NCBI RefSeq assembly: GCF_001879715.1
Contig: NZ_MNBW01000015.1
Span: 1 to 64,000 of the forward strand
Direction: 5' to 3'
DNA: 64,000 bases
Origin: Nioella nitratireducens
GTDB taxonomy: Bacteria; Pseudomonadota; Alphaproteobacteria; Rhodobacterales; Rhodobacteraceae
Of this stretch, positions 16,379-60,027 are shown piece after piece. The notes under the pieces are model-generated. The model was not told the DNA's origin, did not search any database, and worked only from the letters and a program-made list of their open reading frames with translations. Numbering within the stretch: position 1 is the first letter of the stretch; each line of letters begins with the position of its first letter. The position numbers and the translations under genes are program-made.

Positions 16379-17545
16379 TCACATCCGCTTGGCGACCTCT
16401 TCGAGCATGACCTCGGTGGCGCCGCCGCCAATGGCCTGAACGCGGGCATCGCGCGACATGCGTTCGACGGGGGTTTCACGCATGTAGCCCATGCCGCCGT
16501 GGAACTGGACGCAGTCATAGAGCACGCTGTTCACCAACTCACCGCAATAGGCTTTGACCATCGATACTTCCTTGACGCAATCGCGGCCCGCGGCATCCAG
16601 TGACGCGGCGTGATAGGTAAGCTGGCGTCCCGCCTCGATCCGGGTCTGGCAATCAGCCAACCGCTGGCGCACTGCCTGCTTGTCCCACAGCACACCACCG
16701 AAAGCCTTGCGCTGCTTGACATAATCCACAGTCATGTCCAGTGCGGACTGCGCCTCGGCGCAGGCCATGGCGCCCAGCACGATCCGTTCGTTCTGGAAGT
16801 TCTTCATCACCGAGTAGAAGCCCCGGTTCACCTCTCCCAGCACGTTCTCTGCCGGGATGCGCACATCCTCGAAAATCAGTTCGGCGGTGTCCGAGCACAG
16901 CCAGCCGGTCTTGTTCAGCGCCCGGCCGACCGAAAAGCCCGGTGTACCTTTTTCGACCGTGAACATGGTGATCCCGCGAGAGCCCTTGGCGTCCGGGTCG
17001 GTCTTGGCGCCGACGAAATAGATGTCGCCATGCACGCCATTGGTGATGAACATCTTGGTGCCGTTGATCACCCAGTCCGATCCGTCCTGCACCGCTCGGG
17101 TGCGCATCCCCGCCACGTCAGACCCGGCGCCGGGTTCGGTCACGGCCACCGCAGCGATCTTTTCGCCCGAGGTGATCAAGGGCATCCAGCGCGCCTTTTG
17201 TTCGGGCGTACCGGCGTTTTCAAGATGCGGCGAGGCCATGTCGGTATGGACCAGAACGGTGGCCGAAAAGCCGCCGAAGGTGGAACGCCCCACCTCTTCG
17301 GCCAGCATCACGCTGGACATCACGTTCAGCCCCGAGCCGCCATATTGCTCGTCATAGCGCATGCCCAGCACGCCCAGATCGCCCATCCGGCGCAGCACGT
17401 CACGCGGCACCATGCCATCCTTTTCCCAAGCGTCGGCCTTGGCCGTCACTTCGGTTTCGATGAAGCGGCGCAGCTGCGCGCGGATCATGTTCAGGTCTTC
17501 ACTGAACGGGCTTGTGGCCGCATCAGTCGTGTCATGCTTGGTCAT
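16379..17545 (-). CDS. Acyl-CoA dehydrogenase (FadE/AtuD-like)
   Basis: This 388-residue FAD enzyme introduces an alpha,beta double bond into an acyl-CoA and passes electrons to ETF. The N-terminal helical domain, the FAD/substrate strand motif (VAVTEPGAGSDVAGM) and the C-terminal four-helix bundle are complete. FQNERIVLGAM places a Glu at the isovaleryl/long-chain-type catalytic position; QFHGGMGYMRETPVER carries another at the short-chain-type position. Its ATG overlaps the TGA of the biotin carboxylase gene (ATGA), so it is the last gene of the tetR-carboxylase operon. A citronellyl-CoA-dehydrogenase-like role is possible from context only. Its 3' end lies within 100 bp of IS110, at the left edge of the island. 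Confidence 0.85.
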   Translation of the reverse strand: MTKHDTTDAATSPFSEDLNMIRAQLRRFIETEVTAKADAWEKDGMVPRDVLRRMGDLGVLGMRYDEQYGGSGLNVMSSVMLAEEVGRSTFGGFSATVLVHTDMASPHLENAGTPEQKARWMPLITSGEKIAAVAVTEPGAGSDVAGMRTRAVQDGSDWVINGTKMFITNGVHGDIYFVGAKTDPDAKGSRGITMFTVEKGTPGFSVGRALNKTGWLCSDTAELIFEDVRIPAENVLGEVNRGFYSVMKNFQNERIVLGAMACAEAQSALDMTVDYVKQRKAFGGVLWDKQAVRQRLADCQTRIEAGRQLTYHAASLDAAGRDCVKEVSMVKAYCGELVNSVLYDCVQFHGGMGYMRETPVERMSRDARVQAIGGGATEVMLEEVAKRM

Positions 17546-19548
17546 TGGATTTCCTCCGGATCGAGTTTTACAAGGGGTGCTTGCCCGGCGATGGTATCGC
17601 CGGCGGCGCAGTAGATTTCGGCCACGATGCCCGCAACCGGGGCGACCAGGCTTTGTAGGAGCTTCATCGCCTCAAGCACCACCAGTGTATCGCCCGCCTC
17701 GACCCGATCGCCGGGCGCGACGCGCAGTTCGACCACTGCACCGGGCATCGGCGCGACAAGCAAATCTGCCCCGCCGGCCTGTCCCGCAGCGCGTTGCAGG
17801 TGCCTGTCCTCCAGCGTTTCAATGGCAAACCCGGCCATACCATCCGGCGTGGATAGAAACACCTGCCAGTGATCTTTCGTGCGGCGCAGGTGGGCGGCGC
17901 GGGTAAAGGGCACGCCGCCGATACGGCCTGTCAGGCGATTGGCGGTCAGGTCGGGCGATTCAACGGCCAAACGGGCGCCGTCGGGCAATACCATCGCCAG
18001 TTGCGTTGCATCGCCCGCCACGCGGGTCGGATCGTCATCGTCCGAGGCCCAATAATGTGCCGCACCCGGCCGACCCGCGGGCGCGGTCAGGCGCCATGCG
18101 CTCAGCGTTTGCCACGGGGTGTTGCCGGTCTTTGGCGCCAGATGCAGATGCAGAGCCAGCGCGGCCAGCGCGCGGCTTTGCGCATCTGGTTTGGGGGGTG
18201 TCCAGCCGTTCGCAAACATCTCGCCAAGCCCGGTGGTGTGATGCCGGATCGCGGCAAAATCGGGATGCATCAACAAGGCGCGCTGAAACGCCAGGTTCAG
18301 CCCCACCCCGCCCACTGCAAAGCCGTCGATCGCAGCCACGCTGTCACGGATCGCCTGTGCCCGGTCTGGGGCATGGATGATCAGCTTGGCCAGCATGGAA
18401 TCGTAGTGATGGCCGACAATTGAGCCTTGCCCGACCCCAGTATCGAGCCGCACGCCCGAGGGCGGTGCCCAAAGCGTGATCGTGCCGGTTTCTGGGCGGT
18501 AGTTTTCAGCCGGGTTTTCGGCGGCGATGCGCACTTCGATGGCGTGGCCTTTGAACCGCACGTCGGATTGCTGGAATGTCAGCGCCTCGCCCCGCGCGAT
18601 GCGCAATTGCCATTCCACCAGATCAATCCCGGTGATCGCCTCGGTCACGGGATGTTCGACCTGAAGGCGGGTGTTCATCTCAAGGAAGTAATAGGCGCGT
18701 CGCTCGGGGTCAAAAAGATACTCAACCGTTCCGACAGAACGGTATCCGATCGCCTGCGCAAGCCGCACGGCGGCGGCGCGCATGTCGTCGCGCAGATCGC
18801 CGGGCAGATCGGGCGCGGGGGCCTCTTCGATCAGCTTCTGGTGATTGCGTTGCAGCGAACAGTCCCGGTCGCCGAGATGCACCAGGTTGCCATGGGTGTC
18901 GCCCAGAACCTGCACCTCGACATGGCGCGCGCGCGAGGCATAGCGTTCCAGGAACACCGCCGGATCGCCGAACGCGCCCTGCGCCTCGGCCCGGGCAGAG
19001 GCGATGGCCTCGGGCGCGGCGGCGATGTCGGTGACAAGCCGCATCCCGCGCCCGCCACCGCCGGCGCTGGCCTTGACCAGGAATGGCGTGCCGAGCGCCT
19101 TGGCCTCTTGCAGCAGGCGCGCGTCCGATTGATCGGAGCCGCGGTAACCGGGCAGCACCGGCACCCCTGCGGCCTCGGCGGCGGCCTTCGCCGCGATCTT
19201 GGACCCCATCTGAGCAATTGCGTCGGGTGCCGGCCCGATAAAGACCAGACCTGCGGCCTCGACCGCTGCCGCAAAATCGGCGTTCTCGGACAGAAAGCCA
19301 TAACCGGGATGCACGGCACCCGCGCCTGTGGCGCGCGCGGCCGCCAGAATGGCCGCGACGTTCAGATAGCTGGCGGCAGCGGCGGCGGGGCCGATGCAGA
19401 CGGCGTGATCGGCCTCGGCCACAATGGGAGCGTCGCGGTCGGCCTCGGAAAAGACCGCAACCGTTTCCAGCCCCAGCTTGCGGCACCCACGCTGGATGCG
19501 CCGGGCGATCTCGCCCCGGTTGGCGATCAGGACGCGGGTGAAACTCAT
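17542..19548 (-). CDS. Acyl-CoA carboxylase alpha subunit (biotin carboxylase + carrier), set 1
   Basis: This 668-residue protein uses ATP and bicarbonate to carboxylate biotin on its own C-terminal domain for the partner carboxyltransferase. The biotin carboxylase part has IANRGEIA, HPGYGFLSEN, the ATP-grasp loop ASAGGGGRGM and EMNTRLQVEHPVTE. A middle region (about 450-590) links to the biotinyl domain with EAMKLL, biotin on about K629. Domain order and length match methylcrotonyl-, geranyl- and propionyl-CoA carboxylase alpha subunits. I start at 19548, where GGAGGG precedes the ATG and the ATG overlaps the upstream TGA. The partner is most likely the carboxyltransferase at 20350-21948. 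Substrate is not determinable by eye. Confidence 0.9.
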   Translation of the reverse strand: MSFTRVLIANRGEIARRIQRGCRKLGLETVAVFSEADRDAPIVAEADHAVCIGPAAAAASYLNVAAILAAARATGAGAVHPGYGFLSENADFAAAVEAAGLVFIGPAPDAIAQMGSKIAAKAAAEAAGVPVLPGYRGSDQSDARLLQEAKALGTPFLVKASAGGGGRGMRLVTDIAAAPEAIASARAEAQGAFGDPAVFLERYASRARHVEVQVLGDTHGNLVHLGDRDCSLQRNHQKLIEEAPAPDLPGDLRDDMRAAAVRLAQAIGYRSVGTVEYLFDPERRAYYFLEMNTRLQVEHPVTEAITGIDLVEWQLRIARGEALTFQQSDVRFKGHAIEVRIAAENPAENYRPETGTITLWAPPSGVRLDTGVGQGSIVGHHYDSMLAKLIIHAPDRAQAIRDSVAAIDGFAVGGVGLNLAFQRALLMHPDFAAIRHHTTGLGEMFANGWTPPKPDAQSRALAALALHLHLAPKTGNTPWQTLSAWRLTAPAGRPGAAHYWASDDDDPTRVAGDATQLAMVLPDGARLAVESPDLTANRLTGRIGGVPFTRAAHLRRTKDHWQVFLSTPDGMAGFAIETLEDRHLQRAAGQAGGADLLVAPMPGAVVELRVAPGDRVEAGDTLVVLEAMKLLQSLVAPVAGIVAEIYCAAGDTIAGQAPLVKLDPEEIQ

Positions 19549-20339
19549 TTCACCCTCCACGAAGGCAAGCTCTTGTTGAGAAAGCTGTTGATGCCTTCAA
19601 TGCCTTCCTCGGTTTCCCAGGCATCGGCCAGACGGTCGGCGGTGTAGATCATGTTGGTTTCCAGATCGTGACTGGCGACATAAGCGATCAGTGCCTTGGT
19701 ATCCGCCACCGCGCCGGGTGCTGCCTGAAGGTGATTGTGCACCACCCTTTCAACGGCGGCATCCAATGCGTCGGCGGTGACGACCTCGGTGAGGAGCCCG
19801 ATCCTTTCAGCGCGCGCGCTGTCGAAGAGCGCGCCCGACAGCATGGTTTCACGCGAGTGCACCTTGCCGATGCGGGCCACAACGTAGGGCGAGATATTGG
19901 CGGGCAGCAGACCCAGTTTCACTTCGGTCAGGCCATAGCGTGCGCCTTGGGCGCCGATGGTATAGTCGCAGACCGAAATCATGCCGACGCCACCGCCATA
20001 TGCCGGCCCATTGATCCGCCCGATCAGGGGCTTTCGCAGCGTGTCCAGTCGGCGCAGCAGATGCGCCAGCGTGGCGCTTTGTTCGACCCGCCCGGCGCGG
20101 GATTTTTCGACGTTTGAGGCGAACCAGTTGAAGTCCCCTCCAGCGCAAAAGCTTTTGCCGGCACCGGTCAGGATCACGATGCGCACCTTGTCATCTGAGG
20201 CCAGATCCTCGACCGCGTGAAAAAGCTCGGCGATCAGATCGCCGTTCAGGGCATTGTGTTTGTCAGGGCGGTTGAGCGTTACCGTGGCAACGCCACGTGC
20301 ATCGGTTTCGACAAGGATGGTTTCATAAGTTGTTGTCAT
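19545..20339 (-). CDS. Enoyl-CoA hydratase/isomerase family protein (crotonase 1)
   Basis: This 264-residue crotonase-fold protein lies between carboxyltransferase and biotin carboxylase, the place of methylglutaconyl-CoA or isohexenylglutaconyl-CoA hydratase genes (LiuC, AtuE) in known pathways. CAGGDF supplies the first oxyanion-hole region and YGGGVGM the second. The first canonical catalytic Glu is replaced by Gly (GGGVGM where crotonase has GGGCEL); the second is present in LTEVKLG. I start at 20339 because the longer frame overlaps the upstream gene heavily. Hydration of a glutaconyl-type CoA after carboxylation is inference. Confidence 0.85.
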   Translation of the reverse strand: MTTTYETILVETDARGVATVTLNRPDKHNALNGDLIAELFHAVEDLASDDKVRIVILTGAGKSFCAGGDFNWFASNVEKSRAGRVEQSATLAHLLRRLDTLRKPLIGRINGPAYGGGVGMISVCDYTIGAQGARYGLTEVKLGLLPANISPYVVARIGKVHSRETMLSGALFDSARAERIGLLTEVVTADALDAAVERVVHNHLQAAPGAVADTKALIAYVASHDLETNMIYTADRLADAWETEEGIEGINSFLNKSLPSWRVK

Positions 20340-20349: not shown

Positions 20350-21948
20350 TCACATTCTGAAGACGGGCGTGTGGCGCCCTTTCTCGGGAACCAAAGAGAC
20401 AATGGCCAGACACAGGCCCAGAATATCGCGGGTCTGCCCGGGCTCGATCAGCCCGTCATCCCAGAGCCGCGAAGTGGCGTAATACGGATCGGACTGTTCG
20501 CCATATTGGGCACGCACCTGCGCCTCGATCTGCGCAAGATCAGTCTCCATCCTTTCAGGCTCGCCGCCTTTCTGGCGACGCAGTTCCAGCATCACGTTGC
20601 TCGCGATGTCCGCGGACATGGTGGCCAACTCTGCCGTTGGCCAGGCAAAGAGGAAATTCGGAGCAAATCCGCGGCCGCACATGCCGTAATTGCCCGCGCC
20701 ATAGGATCCGCCAAGCAGGACCGACAGGCGCGGCACCTTGGCGACGGACATGGCATAGACCAGCTTGGCGCTGTTCTTGGCGATGCCGCCGCGCTCCGCC
20801 TCGGTCCCTACCATGAAACCCGCGATGTTGTGCAGGAACAGTAGCGGGATATTGCGCTGATCGCACATCGAGACGAACTGCGCGCCCTTCAGCGAACTGT
20901 CCGACATCAGCGCGCCGTTGTTGGCCAGGATACCGACCCGATAGCCGTGGATCCGCGCGGTGCCGCAAACCAGCGTCTCGCCCCAGCCGGGCTTGAATTC
21001 GCGGAACTCGCCCGCGTCGATCATGCGCAGCAGAACTTCGCGCATGTCATAGGGCTGCTTGCGGTCGGCGCTGATGATGCCGAGCAATTCTGACGGGTCA
21101 TGCGCGGGCGGCGCGGGGGCTGCGTCGGGCTGCATCGGGCGCGATGGACCAAGTTCTGCCACGATGTCGCGCATCAACGCCAGCGCATGGTATTCGTCCT
21201 CGGCCAGATGGTCGGACACGCCCGAGACGCGCGTGTGCATTTCGGCCCCGCCCAGGGTTTCGCCATCGGCCACTTCGTTGATCGCCACCTTAACGATCGA
21301 GGGGCCGCCCAGATGGATGCGCGCGTTGCCGCGCACCATGATGACCTCGTCCGACAGCGCGGGAATATAGGCCCCGCCTGCCGTGCAGCCGCCGAACACG
21401 GCCGAGATCTGCGGCAAGCCGCTGGCCGACATGTTGGTCTGGCGATAGAAGGAATTGCCGAAATGGCGGGCATCGGGAAAGACCCGGTCCTGCTCGGGCA
21501 GATAGGCCCCGCCGCAATCCACCAGATAAAGGCAAGGCAGCCGGTTTTCCGCCGCGATTTCCTGGGCGCGGATGTGCTTTTGCACCGTCTCGTGGTAAAA
21601 AGAGCCGCCCTTGACCGTCGCATCATTGGCGATGATCATGCAGGGTAGGCCATGAACGATGCCGATGCCGGTCACGATCCCCGCACCGGGCACCTCGCCG
21701 CCGTATTGCCCGTAGGCCGCGAGCGACGACAGTTCCAGAAACGCCGTGCCCGGATCCGCCAGCAAGTCGATCCTCTCGCGGACCAGCAGCTTGCCGCGCT
21801 TGCGGTGGCGCTCGACCATATCGGGGCGCCCGCCCGAGGTGGCCTCGGCAATCCGCGCGCGCAGCGTCTCGACCCGCGCGCTTTGCGCCTGGTGATTGCG
21901 TGCGTAGATCTCTGATGCGGTCAGCACTGCTGTTTCAAGGCGCGCCAT
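20350..21948 (-). CDS. Acyl-CoA carboxylase beta subunit (carboxyltransferase), set 1
   Basis: This 532-residue protein has two crotonase-like halves that transfer CO2 from carboxybiotin to an acyl-CoA. N-terminal CoA-binding features: NDATVKGG, FGGCTAGGAYIPALSDE and HLGGPSIV. C-terminal: AGFMVGTEAERGGIAK and GGSYGAGNYGMCGR, the pattern of methylcrotonyl- and geranyl-CoA carboxylases rather than propionyl-CoA carboxylases. It ends in a conserved FRM. It starts 3 bp after the tetR stop and is translated with the alpha subunit two genes downstream. It is the first of three such proteins in the island. Confidence 0.9.
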   Translation of the reverse strand: MARLETAVLTASEIYARNHQAQSARVETLRARIAEATSGGRPDMVERHRKRGKLLVRERIDLLADPGTAFLELSSLAAYGQYGGEVPGAGIVTGIGIVHGLPCMIIANDATVKGGSFYHETVQKHIRAQEIAAENRLPCLYLVDCGGAYLPEQDRVFPDARHFGNSFYRQTNMSASGLPQISAVFGGCTAGGAYIPALSDEVIMVRGNARIHLGGPSIVKVAINEVADGETLGGAEMHTRVSGVSDHLAEDEYHALALMRDIVAELGPSRPMQPDAAPAPPAHDPSELLGIISADRKQPYDMREVLLRMIDAGEFREFKPGWGETLVCGTARIHGYRVGILANNGALMSDSSLKGAQFVSMCDQRNIPLLFLHNIAGFMVGTEAERGGIAKNSAKLVYAMSVAKVPRLSVLLGGSYGAGNYGMCGRGFAPNFLFAWPTAELATMSADIASNVMLELRRQKGGEPERMETDLAQIEAQVRAQYGEQSDPYYATSRLWDDGLIEPGQTRDILGLCLAIVSLVPEKGRHTPVFRM

Positions 21949-21951: not shown

Positions 21952-22581
21952 TCAGGTCTCCTGTCTTTCAAGTATTCCGTTGAGGAACACATCGGCATAG
22001 GTGCGTGACAGCGCCTCTGCGCTGCCGCGGTGCGGATCGAACCATTCCAGCGTGGCGTTCAGCGCACCGATCAACATCAGGCGCAGGCGGCGGATGTCCA
22101 CGTCGCTTTTCAGCGCGCCGTCTGCCTGAAGCCGGGACAACAGGTTGTCCCATTCGGCCTCATAGGCCCGGCGCGTGTGCAGATTGGCATCGCGGACGGA
22201 TTGCGGCACCTGCCCGAAAATGCGCACATTGGCCGAGGAATAATCGCTGACGTCCAGAAGCGCGCGCAGATGCGCCCCGATCGCTGCCCGCAGGATCGCC
22301 TCGGCGCCGGCGCCCTCGGGCAAGGCGGAAACGGCTTGGCGCATGCTCTCGTGAACGACCTGAATGCCTGCATCCAGAACGCCCGCGACGATCTCGTCCT
22401 TGGAGCCGAAATGGTAATATATGCTGCCCGCCTTGATCCCTGCGGCCTCGGCGATTTTTCTGAGTGACACGGACCCATAGCCCTGTTCGCGGAAGAGCCG
22501 CGCCGCAATATCCAGCACGCCATCACGCCCGACCGCCCTCCGGGGGATCTCGTTGAGCTTGCGCGCTGTGGTATTCGCCAT
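21952..22581 (-). CDS. TetR-family transcriptional regulator heading the first operon
   Basis: This 209-residue protein has an N-terminal helix-turn-helix (about 18-64: LDIAARLFREQGYGSVSLRKIA, then GIKAGSIYYHF) and a C-terminal ligand domain, as in FadR/LiuR/AtuR-like regulators that respond to acyl-CoAs. The recognition helix AGSIYYHF is nearly identical to those of both HTH units of the double TetR at 37152. Its gene is first in the operon tetR-carboxyltransferase-crotonase-biotin carboxylase-dehydrogenase. The palindrome at 22609-22622, 27 bp upstream of its ATG, suggests autorepression. Confidence 0.9.
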   Translation of the reverse strand: MANTTARKLNEIPRRAVGRDGVLDIAARLFREQGYGSVSLRKIAEAAGIKAGSIYYHFGSKDEIVAGVLDAGIQVVHESMRQAVSALPEGAGAEAILRAAIGAHLRALLDVSDYSSANVRIFGQVPQSVRDANLHTRRAYEAEWDNLLSRLQADGALKSDVDIRRLRLMLIGALNATLEWFDPHRGSAEALSRTYADVFLNGILERQET

Positions 22582-22762: not shown

Positions 22763-23593
22763 TCAGATCGTGAAGCCGCCGCCGCAAATGATGTGCTGAC
22801 CCGAAATGAAGTTCGATTCGGGCGTACAGAACAAATAGACCGCACCGGCGGCCTCTTCCGGAGTGCCGACCCGACCCAGCGGAATCATGCGCTCCATCTG
22901 GGACAAGAGATCGGGGTTCACACCAACCTTGATCTCTTTGTCTTCCACCTTGATTGTGCTGTCGCCTTTGGCGCTGCCCTCGGTCAGCCGCGTGCGGATC
23001 GGGCCAAAGGCCACCGCGTTGACATTGACCTTGTAACGGCCCCATTCCTTGGCCATCGTCCGGGTGACACCCAAGATACCGGCCTTTGCGGCGGCATAGT
23101 TGATCTGGCCGGCATTACCGCCGGTCCCCGCGATGGATGAGATATTCACCACCTTGCGGAACACCTCCTGCCCTGCGGCAGCCTCTTCCTTGGCCTTGGC
23201 GCTGATCACCGGCTGGGCGGCGCGCAGAATCCTGAAGGGCGCGGTCAGGTGAACGTCGATGATCGCCTGCCACTGTTCGTCGGTCATCTTCTGAACGACG
23301 CTGTCCCAAGTATAGCCGGCATTGTTCACGATGATGTCCAGCCCGCCAAAGCTGTCCACGCCCGTCTTGATGAAACGTTCGGCGAAACCGTCTTCTGTCA
23401 CGCTGCCGGCGCAGACCACGGCCTCGCCGCCAACCGCACGAATGGCCTCGGCGGTCTCATTGGCCGGGTCGGCATCCAGATCGTTGACCACCACGCGCGC
23501 CCCTTCAGAGGCCAGCTTGAGCGCGATCTCGCGACCGATACCCCGGCCCGAACCGGAAACCAGCGCAACGCGCCCGTCAAGTTTTCCAGTCAT
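22763..23593 (-). CDS. Short-chain dehydrogenase/reductase (FabG-like), SDR 1
   Basis: This 276-residue classical SDR probably interconverts a 3-hydroxyacyl- and 3-oxoacyl-CoA or related substrate with NAD(P). SGSGRGIG is the cofactor loop, NNAG is present, and Ser and YAAAK supply the active site (SSIAGTGGNAGQINYAAAK). A 20-residue insertion around residues 200-225 (KGDSTIKVEDKEIKVG) is longer than in standard FabG. GGGAGGAG precedes the ATG. It lies 24 bp after the thiolase stop, so thiolase and SDR probably form a two-gene operon that would do the last beta-oxidation steps. Confidence 0.85.
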   Translation of the reverse strand: MTGKLDGRVALVSGSGRGIGREIALKLASEGARVVVNDLDADPANETAEAIRAVGGEAVVCAGSVTEDGFAERFIKTGVDSFGGLDIIVNNAGYTWDSVVQKMTDEQWQAIIDVHLTAPFRILRAAQPVISAKAKEEAAAGQEVFRKVVNISSIAGTGGNAGQINYAAAKAGILGVTRTMAKEWGRYKVNVNAVAFGPIRTRLTEGSAKGDSTIKVEDKEIKVGVNPDLLSQMERMIPLGRVGTPEEAAGAVYLFCTPESNFISGQHIICGGGFTI

Positions 23594-24872: not shown

Positions 24873-24938
24873 TTTTAGCGCTCAGCCTTGATAACTGTCA
24901 ACATAGCTAAACCGTGATGTAGGGAGCTTGCGTCACTT

Positions 24939-27418: not shown

Positions 27419-27420
27419 TG

Positions 27421-32011: not shown

Positions 32012-32086
32012 TTCCAAGATATCCCCCGTTTTCTGGCCGAACTTGCCTGCAACGTCAGGTCGCGAAAAGCTTGCCTTGATCTAATT

Positions 32087-38522: not shown

Positions 38523-38531
38523 TGCAAAAAA

Positions 38532-38547
38532 TCTAACAGGCGTTAGA
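38532..38547. promoter_or_regulatory. Putative TetR operator between double TetR and SDR 3
   Basis: TCTAACAGGCGTTAGA has perfect TCTAAC/GTTAGA arms, 9 bp from the double TetR ATG and 66 bp from the SDR gene start. It fits an autoregulated divergent promoter. Confidence 0.72.
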
Positions 38548-38613
38548 ATACACGAAAGAACGCCTCGAATCAAGTTCTTTGCCAAGGTGTTAGCAGAAGA
38601 GGAGGAGATCCAT

Positions 38614-53317: not shown

Positions 53318-55327
53318 ATGAAAATCAAAACGCTTCTTATCGCCAATCGCGGCGAAATCGCCTGCCGAATCGCGCGCACCGCGCGGGCCAGCGGCATCAC
53401 CCCTGTTGGCGTGCATTCGCAGGCCGACGCCAACGCCCTTCACGTCCGTGAGATCGGCAAATCTGTCTGCATCGGTGCCGGTCCCGCATCCGAGAGCTAT
53501 CTGAAGATCGACGCAGTCATCGCCGCCGCCAGATCCGTCGGCGCCGATGCGATCCATCCCGGTTACGGCTTTCTGGCAGAGAACGCAGATTTCGCCCGCG
53601 CGGTCGAAGCCGCAGGCATGATCTTCATGGGGCCGACACCGGAAACGCTGGAACGCTTCGGCGACAAGGCCAGCGCCAAGGACGCGGCGGTTGCTGCCGG
53701 CATTCCGGTTGTCTCGGGCGCCCAGGGCGCGCGCTCCAACCTGCAGGAAATCGCACAGGAAGTGCGCAAGATGGGCCTACCGGTGCTGCTCAAGGCGGTC
53801 GGCGGCGGCGGCGGGCGCGGGCAGCGGCTCGTGACAGATGAAGCCACGCTTGTGGAGGACATCGAGGGCGCGCTGCGCGAAGCAAAGTCCACCTTTGGCT
53901 CCGAGGGCCTTCTGCTGGAACGCTTTCTGCCCGAGGCCCGTCATGTCGAGGTGCAGATCGCGGGCGACGGCAAGGGCCATGTGGTGCACCTGTTCGAGCG
54001 CGACTGCACGCTTCAGCGCCGCCACCAGAAGGTCATCGAAGAGGCCCCGGCCTGGGGCCTGCCCCGCGCGCTTCTGGACGAGATCGCGCATGACGCGGTG
54101 CGCCTGGGCGAAACGCTCGATTATCGCGGTCTGGGCACGGTGGAGTTTCTGGTTGCGGGGGACGAGTATTTCTTTCTGGAGGTGAACCCGCGCATCCAGG
54201 TGGAACACCCCGTAACAGAGGCGATCACCGGGCTGGACCTGGTCGCGTTGCACCTGCGCATTGCCGAGGGCGCGGGCCTGGGGCTTGTGCAGGGTGATCT
54301 GCGGATCAACGGCCACGCCGTCGAGGCGCGGCTTTACGCCGAAGACCCGGCCATGCAATTCGCCCCCTCGACGGGCACGCTGACCACGCTCAGCCTGCCC
54401 AGCGGTCTGCGGATCGACAGCGGTGTCGAAGAAGGTGACGCGGTGACGCCCTATTACGACCCGATGATCGCCAAGCTGATCGTGCACGCGCCCGACCGGG
54501 AAACCGCCCTGGCGCGGCTGGCGACGGCGCTGGACCATGTCGCGGTGGAGGGCGTGGAAACCAACCGTGCCTTTCTGACGGCGCTGGCGCGAAACCCCGA
54601 ATTCGGGCAGATGCAGGTTCATACGCGCTGGATCGACGGTCGGCTTGACGCGCTGACAAAGCCGACCCAGCTTTCCCGCCCCGAGCGGTGGAAGGCAGCC
54701 GCCGCAATTCTGTTCGTGGCAACGTCGCGCCGCGATGCGGATGCCGATCCCTGGACCAACCGCGATACCTTCACTGGCTGGCGGCTTGGCCTGGGTGGCG
54801 ATGCGGTTGAGGCGGGACAGCGCGTGACGCTCACCGATTCCGCCGGTGCATCCGAAGAATTGCGCGTCGGCCCGGTCAAACCTGGTGACAAATACACCGT
54901 CATTTCGGAAAACGGCAATGCGACCATGTTGACCGCGTGTGAAATCACGCCGGGTCGATGGCGCCTGAGCGAGGGCGATACCGTCCTTCTGATCGACGCA
55001 CGGCTGCACGCCGGGGTGATTGAGATGGACACGCCCGAAGGTCGGCTAATCTTTCGCCCGGCCACGCCGCTGGCCTTTGCCGGCGGCGATGCGGCAGCGG
55101 ATCGCGCCGTGGTCTCGCCGCTAACCGGCATGATCGTCGAGATCAAGGTGACCGACGGTCAACCCGTCGCCGCAGGCGACGTGATTGCGGTCATGGAGTC
55201 CATGAAAATGGAAATCTCGATCCGCGCTGCCGCAGCCGGGATTGCCAGCAATATTTCCGTCTCGAATGGGGACATGGTCGATCGCGGCCAGGTCATCGCC
55301 GAGATACTGCCATCTGAGGAGCAATGA
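53318..55327 (+). CDS. Acyl-CoA carboxylase alpha subunit (biotin carboxylase + carrier), set 3
   Basis: This 669-residue protein has IANRGEIACR, HPGYGFLAEN, AVGGGGGRGQ (Gln where sets 1 and 2 have Met), EVNPRIQVEHPVTE and the biotinyl motif ESMKME with biotin on about K630. It is the same architecture as set 1 but not closely similar. It lies between its beta subunit and the HMG-CoA-lyase-like gene, which starts one base after its TGA. Confidence 0.9.
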   Translation: MKIKTLLIANRGEIACRIARTARASGITPVGVHSQADANALHVREIGKSVCIGAGPASESYLKIDAVIAAARSVGADAIHPGYGFLAENADFARAVEAAGMIFMGPTPETLERFGDKASAKDAAVAAGIPVVSGAQGARSNLQEIAQEVRKMGLPVLLKAVGGGGGRGQRLVTDEATLVEDIEGALREAKSTFGSEGLLLERFLPEARHVEVQIAGDGKGHVVHLFERDCTLQRRHQKVIEEAPAWGLPRALLDEIAHDAVRLGETLDYRGLGTVEFLVAGDEYFFLEVNPRIQVEHPVTEAITGLDLVALHLRIAEGAGLGLVQGDLRINGHAVEARLYAEDPAMQFAPSTGTLTTLSLPSGLRIDSGVEEGDAVTPYYDPMIAKLIVHAPDRETALARLATALDHVAVEGVETNRAFLTALARNPEFGQMQVHTRWIDGRLDALTKPTQLSRPERWKAAAAILFVATSRRDADADPWTNRDTFTGWRLGLGGDAVEAGQRVTLTDSAGASEELRVGPVKPGDKYTVISENGNATMLTACEITPGRWRLSEGDTVLLIDARLHAGVIEMDTPEGRLIFRPATPLAFAGGDAAADRAVVSPLTGMIVEIKVTDGQPVAAGDVIAVMESMKMEISIRAAAAGIASNISVSNGDMVDRGQVIAEILPSEEQ

Positions 55328-55328: not shown

Positions 55329-56288
55329 ATGAGCGACTTTCCCAAATTCGTCGAATTTCGTGAGGAAGGCCCGCGCGAGGGCTTTCAGATCGAAAAGAAG
55401 ATCTACCCGATCGAACAGCGGATCGAACTGATCGATATGCTTAGCGAAACCGGTCTGAAGCGCATTCAGGTCGGCAGCTTTGTCAGCCCGAAATACGTGC
55501 CGCAGATGGCGGACACCGGGGAGTTGTTCCAGCGTATCAAGCGCAAGCCGGGCGTGAATTACACGTCACTATGGCTGAACGACAAAGGGTTTCGCAAGGC
55601 CCTGACGGCGCATGAGGTCGATATCGACCCGCGCCTGCTGTTATATCCTTCCGAGGCGTTTGCCCAATCGAACAACAATTGTTCCTCCGCGGAAATGCGG
55701 GAAAAACAACGCGACTGGGTTCGTCTTTACAAGGAAGAGGGATATACGATCGACGCGGCCTATGTGATGACGGCCTTCGGCTGCAACCTCGAAGGCCCCA
55801 TCCCGCAAGAGCGCATCTTGGACGATTTCCGCTTCATTCTTCAGCTGTGCGAAGAAGAGGACATCCCCGTACCGATCCTTGTGATCGCCGATACAATGGG
55901 CTGGGGCAACCCCGAGGCGGTCAAACGAATGATTGGCGCGCTGCGGGAACTGGCACCCGGTGCCCGCATCGGGATGCATATTCACGACACGCGCGGCCTT
56001 GGCATCGCCAATCTTTACGCGGCCCTGTCGATGGGGGTGGACATGTTCGAAAGCTCGGTCGCCGGTCTTGGCGGCTGTCCCTTCGCGGGCCACGGCCATG
56101 CCCGCGCCGCAGGAAATGTCTGCACTGAGGATGCGGTGTTCCTGTGCCACGAGCTTGGCATCGAAACCGGGATCGACCTGGACAAGCTGATCGCTGCGGC
56201 GGTTAAGGCGGAAGAAATCATCGGCGCACCACTGATGGGCCGGGTCATGCATACCGGCGGGCTCGACAAGTACCGCAAGGCAAACTGA
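55329..56288 (+). CDS. HMG-CoA-lyase-like protein
   Basis: This 319-residue TIM-barrel lyase would cleave a 3-hydroxy-3-methylglutaryl-type CoA into acetyl-CoA and a ketoacid. EGPREGFQIE carries the catalytic Arg, VGSFVSPKYVPQMAD the substrate loop, HIHDTRG the metal-binding His pair and GLGGCPFAGHG the active-site Cys; ADTMGWG replaces the usual SDTTG. The start at 55329 is the ATG two codons past the upstream stop, preceded by GAGGAG. Presence beside a carboxylase mirrors the last steps of leucine and terpene degradation. Confidence 0.87.
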   Translation: MSDFPKFVEFREEGPREGFQIEKKIYPIEQRIELIDMLSETGLKRIQVGSFVSPKYVPQMADTGELFQRIKRKPGVNYTSLWLNDKGFRKALTAHEVDIDPRLLLYPSEAFAQSNNNCSSAEMREKQRDWVRLYKEEGYTIDAAYVMTAFGCNLEGPIPQERILDDFRFILQLCEEEDIPVPILVIADTMGWGNPEAVKRMIGALRELAPGARIGMHIHDTRGLGIANLYAALSMGVDMFESSVAGLGGCPFAGHGHARAAGNVCTEDAVFLCHELGIETGIDLDKLIAAAVKAEEIIGAPLMGRVMHTGGLDKYRKAN

Positions 56289-56300
56289 AGAGGAATGAAT

Positions 56301-57215
56301 ATGGCAAAGGCACTTGACGGAAAAGTGGTTCTGGTCACCGGCGCGGGTGGCGGTATCGGCCGCGATATCGCGCTGATGGCGGCGTCCGAAGGGGCGGCGG
56401 TGGTGGTCAATGATCTGGGGGCGTCCCTGAAAGGCACCGGCCAGACCGAAAGCGCCGCTCAGGCTGTCGTCGCAGAGATCAAAGCCGCCGGAGGTGATGC
56501 GATCGCCGATGGCGGTTCGGTCAACGACCCCGAGGCCGCGCGTGCGATGATCGAGGCCGGTGTCAAGGAATTCGGTCGCATTGACGCTGTGGTCAACAAC
56601 GCAGGCATCCTGCGCGACGGGTTCTTTCACAAGATGAGCTATGAGGATTTCGATGCGGTGGTGAAGGTCCATCTTTATGGTGCCTTCAATACCAGCCGCG
56701 CTGCCGCCGATTATTTCCGCGAACAGGAAGGCGGCGCCCTGGTTCACATGACCTCGACCTCGGGTCTGATCGGCAATCTGGCGCAAGCGAACTATTCGGC
56801 CGCAAAGCTGGGTATCGCGGCGTTCTCGAAATCGGTCGCGCTCGACATGAAGCGGTGGAACGTGCGGTCGAACTGCATCGCGCCCTTCGCCTGGAGCAGG
56901 ATGATCTCGTCGATCAAGACCGAAACGCCCGATCAGATGGCGCGGGTTGCAAAGCTCAAACAGATGACCCCTGCAAAGGTGGCACCCATGGCCTGTTTCC
57001 TCATGTCCGACAAGGCCGATGGCGTCAGCGGGCAGATCTTTGCCGTTCGCAACAATGAGATCTTCCTCTTCAACCAGCCCCGCCCGGTGCGGTCGGTTCA
57101 TTCCGGCCATGGCTGGACAGCAGATGAAATCGCCGAGCGCGCCATTCCCGCGCTAAGATCGCAGTTCACACCACTCGAGGTGTCGGCGGATGTCTTTTCG
57201 TGGGATCCGGTCTGA
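56301..57215 (+). CDS. SDR of the multifunctional-enzyme/17beta-HSD4 type, SDR 4
   Basis: This 304-residue SDR has TGAGGGIGRD, NDLG after strand 2, NNAG, Ser in TSTSGL and NYSAAK active site, with a C-terminal extension of ~55 residues typical of peroxisomal-type 3-hydroxyacyl-CoA dehydrogenase domains. The start at 56301 has AGAGGA upstream; an ATG two codons earlier is possible. Its TGA overlaps the next start (TGATG). It could oxidise the product of the MaoC hydratase at 59188. Confidence 0.83.
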   Translation: MAKALDGKVVLVTGAGGGIGRDIALMAASEGAAVVVNDLGASLKGTGQTESAAQAVVAEIKAAGGDAIADGGSVNDPEAARAMIEAGVKEFGRIDAVVNNAGILRDGFFHKMSYEDFDAVVKVHLYGAFNTSRAAADYFREQEGGALVHMTSTSGLIGNLAQANYSAAKLGIAAFSKSVALDMKRWNVRSNCIAPFAWSRMISSIKTETPDQMARVAKLKQMTPAKVAPMACFLMSDKADGVSGQIFAVRNNEIFLFNQPRPVRSVHSGHGWTADEIAERAIPALRSQFTPLEVSADVFSWDPV

Positions 57216-58009
57216 TGGGGAAGCGCAAGGAAAAGATCACTTCGAACATCGGCTGGAGCACCCCTGACAAGATCTGCGTGCGGGGCCTTGACCTGCCGAA
57301 CGAGATCCTGGGCCACATGAACCTGGGCGATCTCGCCTTTCTGCAACTGACGGGCCGCAAGGCCACGCCAGAGGAAAGCCGGGTCTTCAACGCCATTGTC
57401 ATTACCCTGGTGGAACATGGCATCACGCCCTCGGCCCTTGCCGCACGCATGACCTATATGGGCGCGCCGGAATCGCTTCAGGCGGCGGTGGCGGCCGGTC
57501 TGTGCGGGCTGGGCACGGTCTTTGTCGGCTCGATGGAGGGCGCGTCGAAGATGCTTTACGAGGCGCTGCCGCAGGACAAGCTGGGAACCGGTGTCGATCT
57601 GGATGCGCTTGCCGTCGAGACGGTCGAAAAGTTCCGCGCCCGCAAGGCCATCGTGCCGGGGCTTGGCCATCCGGTACACAAGCCGGTTGATCCACGCACA
57701 CCGCGCCTGTTCCAGATCGCCGCCGAGAATGGCAAATCCGGCGAATATGTCGCTCTGATTCAGAAAATTCAGGGCGTGGCAGAGGCGAAATCGGGAAAGA
57801 TGCTGCCGATCAACGCCACCGGTGCCATCGGCGCGATCTGCTGCGAATTCTGGTTCCCCTGGAAGATCGTGCGCGGCTTCGGTGTGATGGCGCGGGCGAT
57901 CGGGCTGGTCGGCCATATCCTTGAGGAAAGCGAAAACCCGATTTCCTATGAGCTGTGGCAGCGTGCCGAGCAGGAAATCCTTGAAACTTCGGGACCGGGA
58001 GCGAAATAA
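57215..58009 (+). CDS. Citrate-synthase-fold protein (citryl-CoA-lyase-like)
   Basis: This 264-residue protein matches only the C-terminal catalytic part of citrate synthase. The His in GLGHPVHKPVDPRTPRLF and the final Asn/Arg-containing region resemble the citrate-synthase-related citryl-CoA lyases; the N-terminal domain is absent. In that family such proteins cleave an acyl-CoA with a 3-hydroxy-3-carboxy structure, so here it may split a carboxylated intermediate. It starts inside the SDR stop. No experimental role is known to me for this neighbourhood. Confidence 0.75.
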   Translation: MGKRKEKITSNIGWSTPDKICVRGLDLPNEILGHMNLGDLAFLQLTGRKATPEESRVFNAIVITLVEHGITPSALAARMTYMGAPESLQAAVAAGLCGLGTVFVGSMEGASKMLYEALPQDKLGTGVDLDALAVETVEKFRARKAIVPGLGHPVHKPVDPRTPRLFQIAAENGKSGEYVALIQKIQGVAEAKSGKMLPINATGAIGAICCEFWFPWKIVRGFGVMARAIGLVGHILEESENPISYELWQRAEQEILETSGPGAK

Positions 58010-58012: not shown

Positions 58013-59176
58013 ATGCAGACATCAGCTCCCGACACCCATGGCGACCTGCGCGATGCCCTGCGCGCGCTTTGTGCAAATTTCCCGCCGGAATATCATCGAA
58101 AGTTCGGCGAGAACGAAACCTACCCCGTGGAATTTGTCGATGCGCTGACCCGCGAGGGCTGGCTCGCCGCGATGATCCCCGAGGAATACGGCGGATCGGG
58201 CCTGGGTCTGACCGAAGCCTCTATCATCATGGAAGAGGTGAACCGCTGCGGCGGCAACGCGGGCCACTGCCATGGGCAGATGTATAACATGGGCACGCTT
58301 CTGCGGCACGGGTCTGACGAGCAGAAGCAGAAATTCCTGCCCGCCATCGCCAGCGGCGCGCTGCGTCTGCAGTCCATGGCCGTGACAGAGCCGACCACCG
58401 GCACCGACACGACCAAGCTCAAGACCACAGCGGTCAGGAAGGGCGACCGCTATGTGATCAACGGCCAGAAGGTCTGGATCAGCCGCATTCAACATTCGGA
58501 CCTGATGATCCTGCTGGCCCGCACCACACCGTTGAAAGATGTCAAGAAGAAGTCCCAGGGTCTGTCAATCTTCATGGTCGATCTGAAAGAGGCCATCGGC
58601 AATGGCATGGAGGTGCGCCCCATCGCCAACATGCCGGGCCACGAAACCAACGAAGTGTTCTTCGACAACCTGGAGATTCCCGCCGAGAACCTGATCGGAA
58701 CCGAAGGCCGCGGATTTTACCACATTCTTGACGGGCTGAACGCCGAACGCACGCTGATCGCCGGGGAATGTATCGGCGACGGATACTGGTTTGTGGACAA
58801 GGCCCGCGCCTATGCCGGCGAGCGGATCGTCTTCGATCGCCCCATCGGTCAGAATCAGGGCGTGCAGTTTCCCATCGCCAAGGCCTATGTGAACGTCGAG
58901 GCCGCCAACCTGATGCGCTTCGAGGCCGCAAAACGCTTTGACGCCGGGCAGGATTGCGGGGCACAGGCGAACATGGCCAAACTACTAGCCGCTGATGCCA
59001 GCTGGGAAGCGGCCAATGCCTGCATCCAGACCCATGGCGGCTTCGGCTTTGCGCGCGAATACGATGTCGAGCGCAAGTTCCGCGAGGCCCGACTGTATCA
59101 GGTGGCCCCGATCTCGACCAACCTCATCCTGTCCTATGTCGGCGAGCATATCCTGGGTATGCCGCGGTCGTTCTGA
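58013..59176 (+). CDS. Acyl-CoA dehydrogenase (FadE-like), GMPRSF-ending
   Basis: This 387-residue protein is a homologue of that at 49125. MAVTEPTTGTDTTKL replaces the usual GAGSD motif, and Glu is present at both known positions (LNAERTLIAG and FAREYDVERKF). Its first ~15 residues are divergent. It begins 3 bp after the citryl-CoA-lyase-like stop and precedes the MaoC gene, so it probably makes the enoyl-CoA that the MaoC protein hydrates. Confidence 0.85.
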   Translation: MQTSAPDTHGDLRDALRALCANFPPEYHRKFGENETYPVEFVDALTREGWLAAMIPEEYGGSGLGLTEASIIMEEVNRCGGNAGHCHGQMYNMGTLLRHGSDEQKQKFLPAIASGALRLQSMAVTEPTTGTDTTKLKTTAVRKGDRYVINGQKVWISRIQHSDLMILLARTTPLKDVKKKSQGLSIFMVDLKEAIGNGMEVRPIANMPGHETNEVFFDNLEIPAENLIGTEGRGFYHILDGLNAERTLIAGECIGDGYWFVDKARAYAGERIVFDRPIGQNQGVQFPIAKAYVNVEAANLMRFEAAKRFDAGQDCGAQANMAKLLAADASWEAANACIQTHGGFGFAREYDVERKFREARLYQVAPISTNLILSYVGEHILGMPRSF

Positions 59177-59187: not shown

Positions 59188-60027
59188 ATGAGTGAGATCG
59201 AGCTTGACGCGCTGGCACCCTGGCTGGGACGCACTGAAACCAAAGAAGACGTCCTGACGCACGGTCTGATCGACAAATTCCGTGCCACGTTCGGTCCGCA
59301 TCTTTGCGGCGGAGCAGGTGATGTCCCGCTGGGGATTCATTGGTGTATTGCCCTTGATACCGTGCCAGCTGCCGCTCTGTCAGACGATGGCCATGCTGCA
59401 AGGGGTGGGTTTCTGCCCCCTGTCCCGCTGCCCGCCCGCATGTGGGCCGGCGGCGATGTTACACATCTCACGCCGCTGAAGATCGGCGAAACCGTCACCC
59501 GCCGCTCGGTGATCGGGGATATAACGGCCAAGCAGGGCCGCAGCGGAACGTTGGTCTTTGTGACCGTAGAACACGAGTATTCGAGCGGCGGCCGGCTTTG
59601 TATTCGGGAGAAGCAATCGATTGTCTATCGTGAGATTTCCGCGCCCCGCCCGGTCAAAAACGCGCCTGACGCGAGTGACCCCACCACGCTCAGATCGAGC
59701 CTTGCACCGGATCCGGTGCTGCTGTTTCGCTATTCGGCGCTGACGTTTAATGCCCATCGCATCCACTATGACCACGTCTACGCCACCGAAACCGAAGCCT
59801 ACTCCGGGCTCGTTGTACATGGCCCATTGCAGGCGACGCTGCTTCTGAATCTGGCGGCGGAAGCCTTGAAGACGTCGCCCCACCGTTTTTCTTTCCGGGG
59901 ACTTGCACCGCTGACCCTGCCCTGCGAATTGCAGTTGCATAGAGAAGGGGCCGAAACCTCCGGGACAGTCTGGTGTCAGGATCAAAACGGTCTTCGAAGT
60001 TTTACCGCAGAATACGCGGCCGTCTGA
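59188..60027 (+). CDS. MaoC-type hydratase (mesaconyl-C4-CoA-hydratase-like)
   Basis: This 279-residue double-hotdog hydratase resembles FAS1-type/MaoC dehydratases such as mesaconyl-C4-CoA hydratase of the 3-hydroxypropionate cycle. The second half carries the R-hydratase motif NAHRIHYDHVYA with the catalytic Asp/His, then VVHGPLQATLLL. It would add water to an enoyl-CoA with the opposite stereochemistry to crotonases. It is the last gene of the island, 85 bp before IS66 remnants. Confidence 0.83.
   Translation: MSEIELDALAPWLGRTETKEDVLTHGLIDKFRATFGPHLCGGAGDVPLGIHWCIALDTVPAAALSDDGHAARGGFLPPVPLPARMWAGGDVTHLTPLKIGETVTRRSVIGDITAKQGRSGTLVFVTVEHEYSSGGRLCIREKQSIVYREISAPRPVKNAPDASDPTTLRSSLAPDPVLLFRYSALTFNAHRIHYDHVYATETEAYSGLVVHGPLQATLLLNLAAEALKTSPHRFSFRGLAPLTLPCELQLHREGAETSGTVWCQDQNGLRSFTAEYAAV

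What the first reader, a model, noticed from the sequence alone, without database searches (positions are those of the whole stretch)
16379..60027. 43.6-kb island with three acyl-CoA carboxylases and a full branched-acid pathway of unknown substrate
Three distinct biotin carboxylase/carboxyltransferase sets, six acyl-CoA dehydrogenases, four crotonases, three ligases, AtuA, HMG-CoA-lyase-like and citryl-CoA-lyase-like proteins lie together. Known Liu and Atu pathways use one carboxylase each. Several carboxylations could dismantle a multiply beta-methylated (isoprenoid-like) or alicyclic acid. I know of no described cluster with this exact set.
Basis: partly seen in the sequence, partly recalled or inferred. 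Interest (0 to 1): 0.8.

Follow-up and report, generated by a model that had tools for sequence, protein, structure and literature searches.

The report
Plasmid cluster with three branched-acid carboxylases
A plasmid-borne gene cluster shared by many marine bacteria carries three complete enzymes that seem to add carbon dioxide to hard-to-digest branched acids so that the branch can be cut off; two of them usually go together, the third is a separable add-on, and the natural substrate is still unknown.

Summary
In detail: 16379-60027 carries three complete, distinct biotin-dependent acyl-CoA carboxylases with six acyl-CoA dehydrogenases, four crotonases, three CoA ligases, AtuA, an HMG-CoA-lyase-like and a citryl-CoA-lyase-like protein. 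It is not a chance grouping: the block is collinear on Roseobacter-group plasmids and its genes are under purifying selection.

It is modular. Carboxylases A (17.5-22 kb) and C (51.7-55.3 kb) mostly go together: on Polaromonas JS666 plasmid 2 and at six other Burkholderiales loci, two Liu-type units flank one HMG-CoA-lyase-like gene. Three plasmids have A+C and no AtuA. Carboxylase B (25.8-29.4 kb, with AtuA) is a separable Atu-like unit; B-like units occur without A and C, and one plasmid has A+B without C. All three belong to the gamma-carboxylating MCC/GCC lineage. A and C keep the small-substrate Phe of MCC; B has the Gly of geranyl-CoA carboxylase but is not in the AtuC clade. Relatives continue into transporter and beta-oxidation blocks, so the island is incomplete.

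Best reading: a pathway that removes beta-branches from terpenoid or alicyclic acids by carboxylation, hydration and C-C lysis. The substrate is unproven. New variant of the Liu/Atu principle.

The parts
16379..17545 (-). A: acyl-CoA dehydrogenase (NERIVLG, IGGGATE motifs)
   Evidence: 71% to the JS666 copy
17542..19560 (-). A: biotin carboxylase fused to BCCP (EAMKL)
19545..20339 (-). A: crotonase / methylglutaconyl-CoA-hydratase-like (PRK07468, above cut-off)
   Evidence: start from relatives
20350..21948 (-). A: carboxyltransferase, MCC-type pocket (Phe)
21952..22581 (-). A: TetR regulator
22763..23593 (-). B: SDR oxidoreductase
23618..24802 (-). B: SCP2/lipid-transfer-type thiolase (PRK08256, above cut-off)
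25081..25692 (+). B: hexapeptide-repeat protein
   Evidence: annotated in relatives
25811..27424 (-). B: carboxyltransferase, GCC-type pocket (Gly) but with the 3-residue insertion of MCC
27421..27936 (-). B: separate BCCP (ESMKL)
27924..29393 (-). B: biotin carboxylase without BCCP domain
29390..31204 (-). B: AtuA (PF07287 + PF23544), predicted C-C lyase
   Evidence: lyase role of an AtuA-like pair reported in PMC12016498
31226..32017 (-). B: crotonase
32148..33362 (+). B: ACAD 1 (LDLERAMVA, IGAGTSE motifs)
33377..34576 (+). B: ACAD 2 (LDLERAIVC, VGAGTQE motifs)
34588..35442 (+). B: SDR
35435..36238 (+). B: crotonase (PRK09245-like, just below cut-off)
36250..36732 (+). B: hotdog thioesterase
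36729..37133 (+). B: hotdog thioesterase
37152..38951 (-). double TetR regulator (two TetR_N stretches in one frame); true start uncertain
38614..39375 (+). C: SDR
   Evidence: scanned as 38500-39375; start from relatives
39487..41424 (+). C: acetate/acetoacetate-CoA-ligase-like
41421..42275 (+). C: NmrA-like oxidoreductase
42259..42984 (+). C: AraC-type regulator
   Evidence: scanned as 42058-42984
43006..43461 (+). C: hotdog thioesterase
43489..45009 (-). C: FadD-like CoA ligase
45032..47065 (-). C: old-yellow-enzyme / 2,4-dienoyl-CoA-reductase-like
   Evidence: 57% in JS666
47160..48341 (+). C: cyclohexanecarboxyl-CoA-dehydrogenase-like ACAD (TIGR03207, 523 bits; cut-off 575)
48338..49117 (+). 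C: crotonase
49125..50285 (+). C: ACAD
50312..51703 (+). C: PaaK-like CoA ligase
51700..53307 (+). C: carboxyltransferase, MCC-type pocket (Phe)
53318..55327 (+). C: biotin carboxylase fused to BCCP (ESMKM)
55329..56288 (+). C: HMG-CoA-lyase-like (GGCPFA motif present)
56295..57215 (+). C: SDR
   Evidence: 60% in JS666
57200..58009 (+). citryl-CoA-lyase-like (citrate-synthase family, nearest PDB 6hxp), lower-module lyase
58013..59176 (+). ACAD, lower module
59188..60027 (+). MaoC-like hydratase (FAS1_DH_region), lower module
   Evidence: annotated MaoC in relatives

Best explanation
A plasmid-borne catabolic cluster for a carboxylic acid whose beta-carbons are blocked by branches (a terpenoid-derived or alkyl-alicyclic acid). 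Ordinary beta-oxidation stops at a 3-alkyl-2-enoyl-CoA because the hydrated carbon is tertiary and cannot be oxidised. Each carboxylase set bypasses this: an ACAD makes the enoyl-CoA, a biotin carboxylase/carboxyltransferase adds CO2 at the gamma carbon, a crotonase hydrates the product to a 3-hydroxy-3-alkylglutaryl-CoA type, and a lyase splits the C-C bond so that beta-oxidation can resume. A and C are two such Liu-type units that share one HMG-CoA-lyase-like enzyme and act mostly in one pathway, on small or compact substrates (Phe pocket). B is an Atu-like unit for a bulkier acyl chain (Gly pocket) with AtuA as its lyase, placed between A and C in Roseobacters. The citryl-CoA-lyase-like protein, ACAD4 and MaoC (with a CaiB transferase in relatives) form a lower module that turns a short branched diacid into acetyl-CoA plus a 2-oxo acid. 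Shown here: gene content, conservation, modularity, CT lineage, the pocket residue, selection. Inferred: every reaction, the order of steps and the substrate class.
For: Lineage: the three CTs score 565-603 bits against chains named MCC-beta (3u9r, 8j4z), 411-434 against GCC-beta (5ikl) and at most 264-286 against the classical PCC-beta group (1vrg). PMC4673880 (passages) states that the MCC/GCC lineage carboxylates the gamma carbon of an unsaturated acyl-CoA and that Phe191 (MCC) or Gly162 (GCC) sets the pocket. Residue: Phe in 12 of 12 A-clade and 11 of 11 C-clade CTs; in the B clade Gly in 5 of 6 and Ala in 1; in the AtuC clade Gly in 9 of 10 and Ala in 1; in MCC Phe in 6 of 6. A+C: JS666 plasmid 2 has ACAD-BC-ECH-CT (A), HMGL, BC-CT-ECH-ACAD (C) in a row at 48-71% identity and no AtuA on the whole record; the same holds for BSw21498 and SMR1 (two positive controls in the same call). 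All six Burkholderiales loci among the 80 fetched carry BadJ-ECH-CT-BC (C), HMGL, CT-ECH (A). Family sample of 394 genomes: close orthologues of C in 11, A in 10, AtuA in 9; 9 genomes hold all three, one A+C only, one C only on a short contig. The own genome has a separate MCC-type CT and an HMGL homologue on C45. AtuA as lyase: PMC12016498 section 13 reports an AtuA-like pair cleaving a tertiary 3-hydroxyacyl-CoA that bears a gamma-carboxylate (authors' unpublished data). Lower module: in Limimaricola an ACAD4 homologue (75%), CaiB and MaoC sit with a CitE-type lyase instead. Alicyclic hints: TIGR03207 here, TIGR03208 ligase in JS666, BVMO, hydrolase and SDR at 66-68% shared by JS666 and SMR1.
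Against: No substrate is known; no reaction was assayed. TIGR03207 and TIGR03208 matches are below their cut-offs (523 of 575; 689 of 792). The BVMO set was found in only two of the loci fetched by then, and the own genome has no close homologue (33% at best). One PDB chain named propionyl-CoA carboxylase beta (9tps) scores with the MCC group, 565-598 bits, and the best match of C, 4q0g (634 bits), is named acetyl-/propionyl-CoA carboxylase; so the lineage rests on the tree and the paper, not on names. The pocket rule comes from two enzymes; B keeps the insertion that the paper assigns to MCC, and a B-like CT has Ala. A and C are not strictly paired: A-like CTs of 57-82% occur in 15 of 394 family genomes without a close C, and Sagittula p6 has A+B without C. 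Four of four Burkholderiales genomes searched (of L139-L142) do have an AtuA of 59-61% elsewhere, in three of them about 110 kb away on the same contig, beside a CT only 40-41% identical to B where it was in view; so 'without AtuA' is shown for three plasmid records, not for those genomes. The LIV transporter of the relatives is missing here: no match for its binding protein in the own draft genome, with a positive control.
Confidence: 0.7

Rival explanations
1. A long acyclic isoprenoid acid (phytanate/phytenate or farnesoate type) is degraded, with one chain-length-specific carboxylase per isoprene unit (C20, C15, C10) and the chromosomal MCC for the last C5 unit.
For: AtuA and the Gly pocket of B fit geranyl-size or larger substrates; three carboxylases plus the separate MCC-type CT on C45 would match four isoprene units; hosts include algal and diatom isolates; five of six ACADs carry an ER motif where isovaleryl-CoA dehydrogenase, as I recall, has its catalytic Glu.
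Against: A and C have the Phe that in MCC blocks the second isoprene unit of geranyl-CoA; A+C occur on three plasmids without AtuA; S. pontiacus has four CTs; the BadJ-like ACAD and the BVMO sets of relatives do not fit an acyclic chain.
Confidence: 0.15
2. Independent pathways brought together on one plasmid: A+C for one compound, B (with its own ACADs, thiolase, thioesterases and regulator) for another, the citryl-CoA-lyase module for a third.
For: A B-like set alone on S. alexandrii plasmid 4 and B-like units in five family genomes without close A or C; A+C without AtuA on three plasmids; citryl-CoA lyase in another operon in Limimaricola; the regions have their own regulators (TetR, double TetR, AraC).
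Against: In the family sample every genome with a close AtuA orthologue also has A and C (9 of 9), and in 7 of these 9 (own included) the three lie on one contig in the same order; G193 and G250 are split or rearranged. A also stands beside B without C in Sagittula p6, and four of four Burkholderiales genomes with A+C have an AtuA too.
Confidence: 0.25
3. Extra isozymes of leucine/isovalerate catabolism.
For: A has the Liu content (ACAD, CT, ECH, BC, TetR), the MCC Phe and a PRK07468 hydratase.
Against: A and C form their own clades (local support 1.0), separate from the MCC-type CTs of the same genus, and are 48 and 51% identical to the own one; CoA ligases and, in relatives, a transporter accompany them.
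Confidence: 0.05

Closest known systems
Leucine/isovalerate utilisation (Liu) pathway
   Same: ACAD, MCC-type CT and fused BC-BCCP, crotonase and HMG-CoA-lyase-like protein; Phe pocket in A and C
   Different: Two such units share one lyase gene in Burkholderiales; separate clades from MCC; linked to CoA ligases, an OYE and a BadJ-like ACAD; the host keeps its own MCC-type CT elsewhere
Acyclic terpene utilisation (Atu) pathway
   Same: AtuA next to a carboxylase with the GCC-type Gly, crotonase, ACADs, SDRs, CoA ligase
   Different: B CT is not in the AtuC clade and keeps the MCC insertion; BC and BCCP are separate genes; embedded with A and C
Second ring cleavage in anaerobic naphthalene degradation (Thn, PMC12016498)
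   Same: ACAD, hydratase and AtuA-like lyase acting at a tertiary hydroxyl carbon with a gamma-carboxylate
   Different: There the carboxylate comes from the first ring, not from a biotin carboxylase; anaerobic sulfate reducers; the comparison is with the text only, no Thn sequence was aligned here
Cyclohexanecarboxylate degradation (Bad/Ali-type enzymes)
   Same: TIGR03207-like dehydrogenase here, TIGR03208-like ligase in the JS666 cluster
   Different: Both below the curated cut-offs; no carboxylase is part of that pathway as I recall it

Membership tests
Liu pathway | MCC-beta with Phe at the selectivity position | tested here: met
   A and C Phe, B Gly
Liu pathway | CT groups with MCC-beta of the same hosts | tested here: not met
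   A and C form their own clades, local support 1.0
Liu pathway | activity on 3-methylcrotonyl-CoA | not testable with these tools
   needs enzyme assay
Atu pathway | AtuA (PF07287) | tested here: met
   475.5 bits, cut-off 22.8
Atu pathway | GCC-beta with Gly and without the 3-residue insertion | tested here: inconclusive
   B has Gly but keeps the insertion; the S. pontiacus fourth CT has Gly and no insertion
Atu pathway | CT orthologous to AtuC | tested here: not met
   B clade separate from the AtuC clade
Atu pathway | AtuF: BC fused to BCCP (feature recalled) | tested here: not met
   BC 27924-29393 and BCCP 27421-27936 are separate
gamma-acyl-CoA carboxylases (MCC/GCC lineage) | CT closer to MCC/GCC than to PCC | tested here: met
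   tree and PDB scores (one chain labelled PCC-beta, 9tps, scores with the MCC group)
gamma-acyl-CoA carboxylases (MCC/GCC lineage) | biotinylation motif in the BCCP domain | tested here: met
   EAMKL, ESMKL, ESMKM
Cyclohexanecarboxyl-CoA dehydrogenase (TIGR03207) | score above curated cut-off | tested here: not met
   523.2 bits against 575.35
Citryl-CoA lyase family (PRK06224) | score above curated cut-off | tested here: met
   347.1 bits against 193

The most novel reading that the evidence does not exclude
Carboxylation-driven opening of alicyclic rings in aerobic bacteria. For a cyclohexylacetic-type acid the beta carbon lies in the ring; an ACAD would give the cyclohexylidene-acetyl-CoA, a biotin carboxylase of this cluster would carboxylate the neighbouring ring carbon, a crotonase would add water, and AtuA (or the HMG-CoA-lyase-like enzyme) would split the ring bond to an open-chain 3-oxo-dicarboxylyl-CoA. 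The intermediates would be those of the second ring cleavage of anaerobic naphthalene degradation, but made by adding CO2. This would explain why AtuA and MCC/GCC-lineage carboxylases keep company with cyclohexane-acid enzyme families, and would be a route to naphthenic and cyclic terpenoid acids that needs no oxygenase.
Probability: 0.15. Interest if true: 0.85.

Novelty: new variant of a known kind. Interest (0 to 1): 0.62.

Why it matters
Branched and alicyclic acids from algae, plants and crude oil are slow to degrade, and the genes for removing their branches are poorly known beyond Liu and Atu (general knowledge). This is a conserved, plasmid-borne cluster with a clear functional grammar (two Liu-type units, one swappable Atu-like unit), which makes single-enzyme and knockout tests straightforward. 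If confirmed it would add two carboxylase specificities, a geranyl-type pocket on a second carboxylase branch, and a trait shared by Alpha- and Betaproteobacteria.

Tried and rejected
Rejected: three sets as one indivisible pathway; PCC-type alpha-carboxylases; a plain second leucine pathway; canonical Atu for B. Phytol with one carboxylase per isoprene unit was my first idea and was lowered after the Phe result. I had also taken the Burkholderiales as lacking AtuA; four of four genomes searched have one elsewhere. Led nowhere: literature on the cluster. Of ten searches of the held library, those were aimed at geranyl-CoA carboxylase and at JS666; none listed a paper on the cluster, and most subscription journals are not held. 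Sigma-70 and terminator scan 31900-39600: at the level of shuffles. PDB by sequence for AtuA: best E 0.58. The 24907-25344 frame had no family and overlaps the hexapeptide gene on the other strand. Rows dropped before presence was read: tblastn places under 60% query coverage or 50%, CT matches under 430 residues. dN/dS left out the double TetR and the MaoC gene.
Full report
WHERE IT IS. The window is bases 1-64000 of a 77,122-base contig (C7) of a 4.0-Mb draft genome. Close relatives of the island sit on plasmids of the Roseobacter group. Left of the island is a complete Tn3-type transposon (transposase 11326-14208, resolvase 10594-11205, perfect 38-base inverted repeats 10561-10598 and 14218-14255). 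Right of it are an IS66 transposase remnant and a three-frame element between 47-base inverted repeats (60429-60475 and 63583-63629, 91%), two of whose frames match tyrosine recombinases.

THE OBSERVATION. The three carboxylases are complete: each has a carboxyltransferase, a biotin carboxylase and a biotinylation motif. Between the window and Roseovarius indicus, dN/dS has median 0.078 and maximum 0.34 over 36 of the 38 genes, so none of those compared looks decayed.

SYNTENY. The left query has a place covering at least 80% of it in 14 of 104 matching plasmid records, the right query in 12 of 92. Read in full or in large part: Pseudosulfitobacter DSM 107133, Sulfitobacter alexandrii, S. pontiacus, Roseovarius indicus and Nitratireductor thuwali keep the A, B and C sets in the same order, with single genes missing in some and a transporter block between parts of C in Nitratireductor (S. 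pontiacus was read only into the PaaK gene, its C carboxyltransferase is). They extend beyond the window's island: a biotin transporter BioY left of A (annotated in four of these five, not in S. pontiacus), and a branched-chain-type ABC transporter operon with a CoA ligase, thiolase and CoA transferase beside MaoC in two and elsewhere in the cluster in Nitratireductor. A further block (thiolase with OB-fold partner, MaoC, CaiB, transglutaminase-like, an ACAD pair, crotonase) is kept by the own contig at about 64-77 kb (83-99% identity to DSM 107133) and in JS666 for most of these genes (29-64%; MaoC1 and PaaK not found). Of the 68 with at least 4.5 kb to the right of that gene, 61 have the C carboxyltransferase at 60% identity or more and 7 do not.

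MODULES. (i) A and C mostly go together. On Polaromonas sp. JS666 plasmid 2 the order is ACAD, BC, crotonase, CT (set A), HMG-CoA-lyase-like, BC, CT, crotonase, BadJ-like ACAD (set C): two Liu-type four-gene units around one lyase gene. Six Burkholderiales loci (Acidovorax NO-1, two Hydrogenophaga, Extensimonas, two MAGs) have the C unit, the lyase and the A CT and crotonase in that order; the A BC is in view in five of six and the A ACAD lies outside the stretch in all six. Sulfitobacter BSw21498 and P. pseudonitzschiae SMR1 have A and C; beside A lies a cobalamin-dependent acyl-CoA mutase with MeaB. On these three plasmid records (JS666 plasmid 2, BSw21498, SMR1), searched whole, there is no AtuA and there are exactly two matching CTs, while Sagittula p6 and S. 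alexandrii plasmid 4 gave AtuA in the same call. JS666's other replicons were not searched. (ii) B is separable: a B-like set (CT 65%) is the only such CT on S. alexandrii plasmid 4, and AtuA-BC-crotonase-ACAD units of 48-57% occur in five family genomes (L030-L033, L035) that are in neither the A nor the C list. Sagittula MA-2 p6 has A and B with BioY but no C; that strain has all three on another plasmid. S. pontiacus has B plus a fourth carboxylase and a second AtuA with a transporter. (iii) In 394 genomes of the family, close orthologues of C_CT (92% or more) occur in 11, of A_CT (92% or more) in 10, of AtuA (89% or more) in 9; nine genomes have all three, G049 has A and C on different contigs, G136 has C only on a short contig. 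In 7 of the nine the three lie on one contig in order; in G193 and G250 they are split or rearranged. Fifteen further genomes have A-like CTs of 57-82% without a close C. (iv) The citryl-CoA-lyase-like gene, ACAD4 and MaoC are a separable lower module, with a CaiB transferase in BSw21498 and SMR1. In Limimaricola the ACAD4 homologue (75%), CaiB and MaoC stand with a CitE-type lyase, while the citryl-CoA-lyase homologue (76%) is in another operon.

CARBOXYLASE SPECIFICITY. The CTs score 565-603 bits with chains named MCC-beta (3u9r, 8j4z), 411-434 with GCC-beta (5ikl) and at most 264-286 with the classical PCC-beta group; one chain labelled PCC-beta (9tps) scores 565-598 and the top match of A and C (4q0g) is labelled acetyl-/propionyl-CoA carboxylase. 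In a tree of 50 CTs, A, B and C are separate clades with local support 1.0; A and C each unite Rhodobacterales, Nitratireductor and Burkholderiales sequences, and B lies apart from the AtuC clade. Jurado et al. (PMC4673880; passages read) report that MCC has Phe191 where GCC has Gly162, and that exchanging them changes the substrate preference. I located this column by the (D/E)HFGR motif, whose Phe is residue 191 of the human row by my count. A (12 of 12) and C (11 of 11) have Phe; B has Gly in 5 of 6 and Ala in 1. B keeps the three-residue insertion, so its Gly may have been acquired independently. Five of the six ACADs carry an ER motif where, as I recall, isovaleryl-CoA dehydrogenase has its catalytic Glu; the BadJ-like one does not.

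HOW IT WOULD WORK. Inferred steps: CoA ligation; dehydrogenation; gamma-carboxylation; hydration to a tertiary 3-hydroxyacyl-CoA with a gamma-carboxylate; C-C lysis. For A and C the lysis would be by the HMG-CoA-lyase-like enzyme (acetyl-CoA plus a 3-oxo acid), for B by AtuA (3-oxoacyl-CoA plus a carboxylate). [quoted passage not shown] Thiolases then continue beta-oxidation. The mutase beside A in two relatives could feed A by turning a quaternary carbon into a beta-branch, as pivalyl-CoA mutase does (recalled; not tested).

SUBSTRATE. Unknown. For an alicyclic or cyclic-terpenoid acid: the BadJ-like ACAD (TIGR03207, below cut-off), a cyclohexanecarboxylate-CoA-ligase-like protein in JS666 (TIGR03208, below cut-off), and a BVMO, hydrolase and SDR set at 66-68% shared by JS666 and SMR1, with the BVMO fingerprint in both. 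JS666 plasmid 2 also has a P450 with a ferredoxin gene and an FAD oxidoreductase gene; whether this is the CYP153 known from that strain was not tested (PMC8479775, passages). In Pseudomonas fluorescens Pf-5 two biotin-carboxylase subunits were among five proteins detected only with commercial naphthenic acids (PMC8289671, passages); whether they are Liu, Atu or other was not tested. For an isoprenoid acid: AtuA and the Gly pocket of B. The own genome has a separate MCC-type CT and an HMGL homologue on C45, no close BVMO, no match to the LIV binding protein (the second with a positive control) and a 43% BioY homologue elsewhere.

VERDICT. A real, conserved, plasmid-borne combination of known enzyme types. 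In the ten literature searches made no listed paper describes it. It is a new variant of the Liu/Atu principle. Interest 0.62.

Noticed in passing
window 10561-14255: Complete Tn3-family transposon with resolvase, transposase and perfect 38-base inverted repeats, 2 kb left of the island.
   Followed up: partly
window 60096-63629: IS66 transposase remnant overlapped by an element with 47-base inverted repeats (91%) and three overlapping frames, two of them tyrosine recombinases; resembles a recombinase-in-trio element (name recalled). The third frame (62602-63573) has no Pfam match.
   Followed up: partly
L052 18141-31109 (Sulfitobacter pontiacus pDSM110277_a): A fourth carboxylase set, a second AtuA and a branched-chain-type ABC transporter are inserted in the cluster; the fourth CT has Gly and lacks the MCC insertion.
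   Followed up: partly
L060 7435-10968; L064 13513-17046: Two-subunit cobalamin-dependent acyl-CoA mutase with MeaB and a thioesterase next to set A in clusters that lack set B.
   Followed up: partly
L150 9911, L151 10188, L152 9886, L149 9918: In four Burkholderiales genomes with A+C an AtuA of about 60% stands with another carboxylase, in three about 110 kb from A+C on the same contig: perhaps a second route to the same three-carboxylase logic.
   Followed up: partly
window 37152-38951: One frame holds two TetR DNA-binding domains (double TetR regulator); relatives have a similarly long TetR protein at this place.
   Followed up: no
L018 2745-3311; L055 4597-5163; L053 3076-3681; L017 26123-26689; L148 5458-6024: Biotin transporter BioY directly beside set A in relatives, fitting a high biotin demand; the own genome has only a 43% homologue on another contig.
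   Followed up: partly
L021 9123-9872; L020 19918-20637; L059 8805-9509: A transglutaminase-like protein of unknown role is conserved among the acyl-CoA genes of this cluster in Alpha- and Betaproteobacteria.
   Followed up: no
L062 15867-31657 (Limimaricola variabilis): Citrate-synthase-type and CitE-type lyases sit in neighbouring operons, suggesting that one can replace the other in alkylmalyl-CoA cleavage.
   Followed up: no
window 2304-6722 and 8138-8950: A 1472-residue strawberry-notch-type helicase protein and a DUF736 protein, which I know from plasmids (recalled).
   Followed up: no
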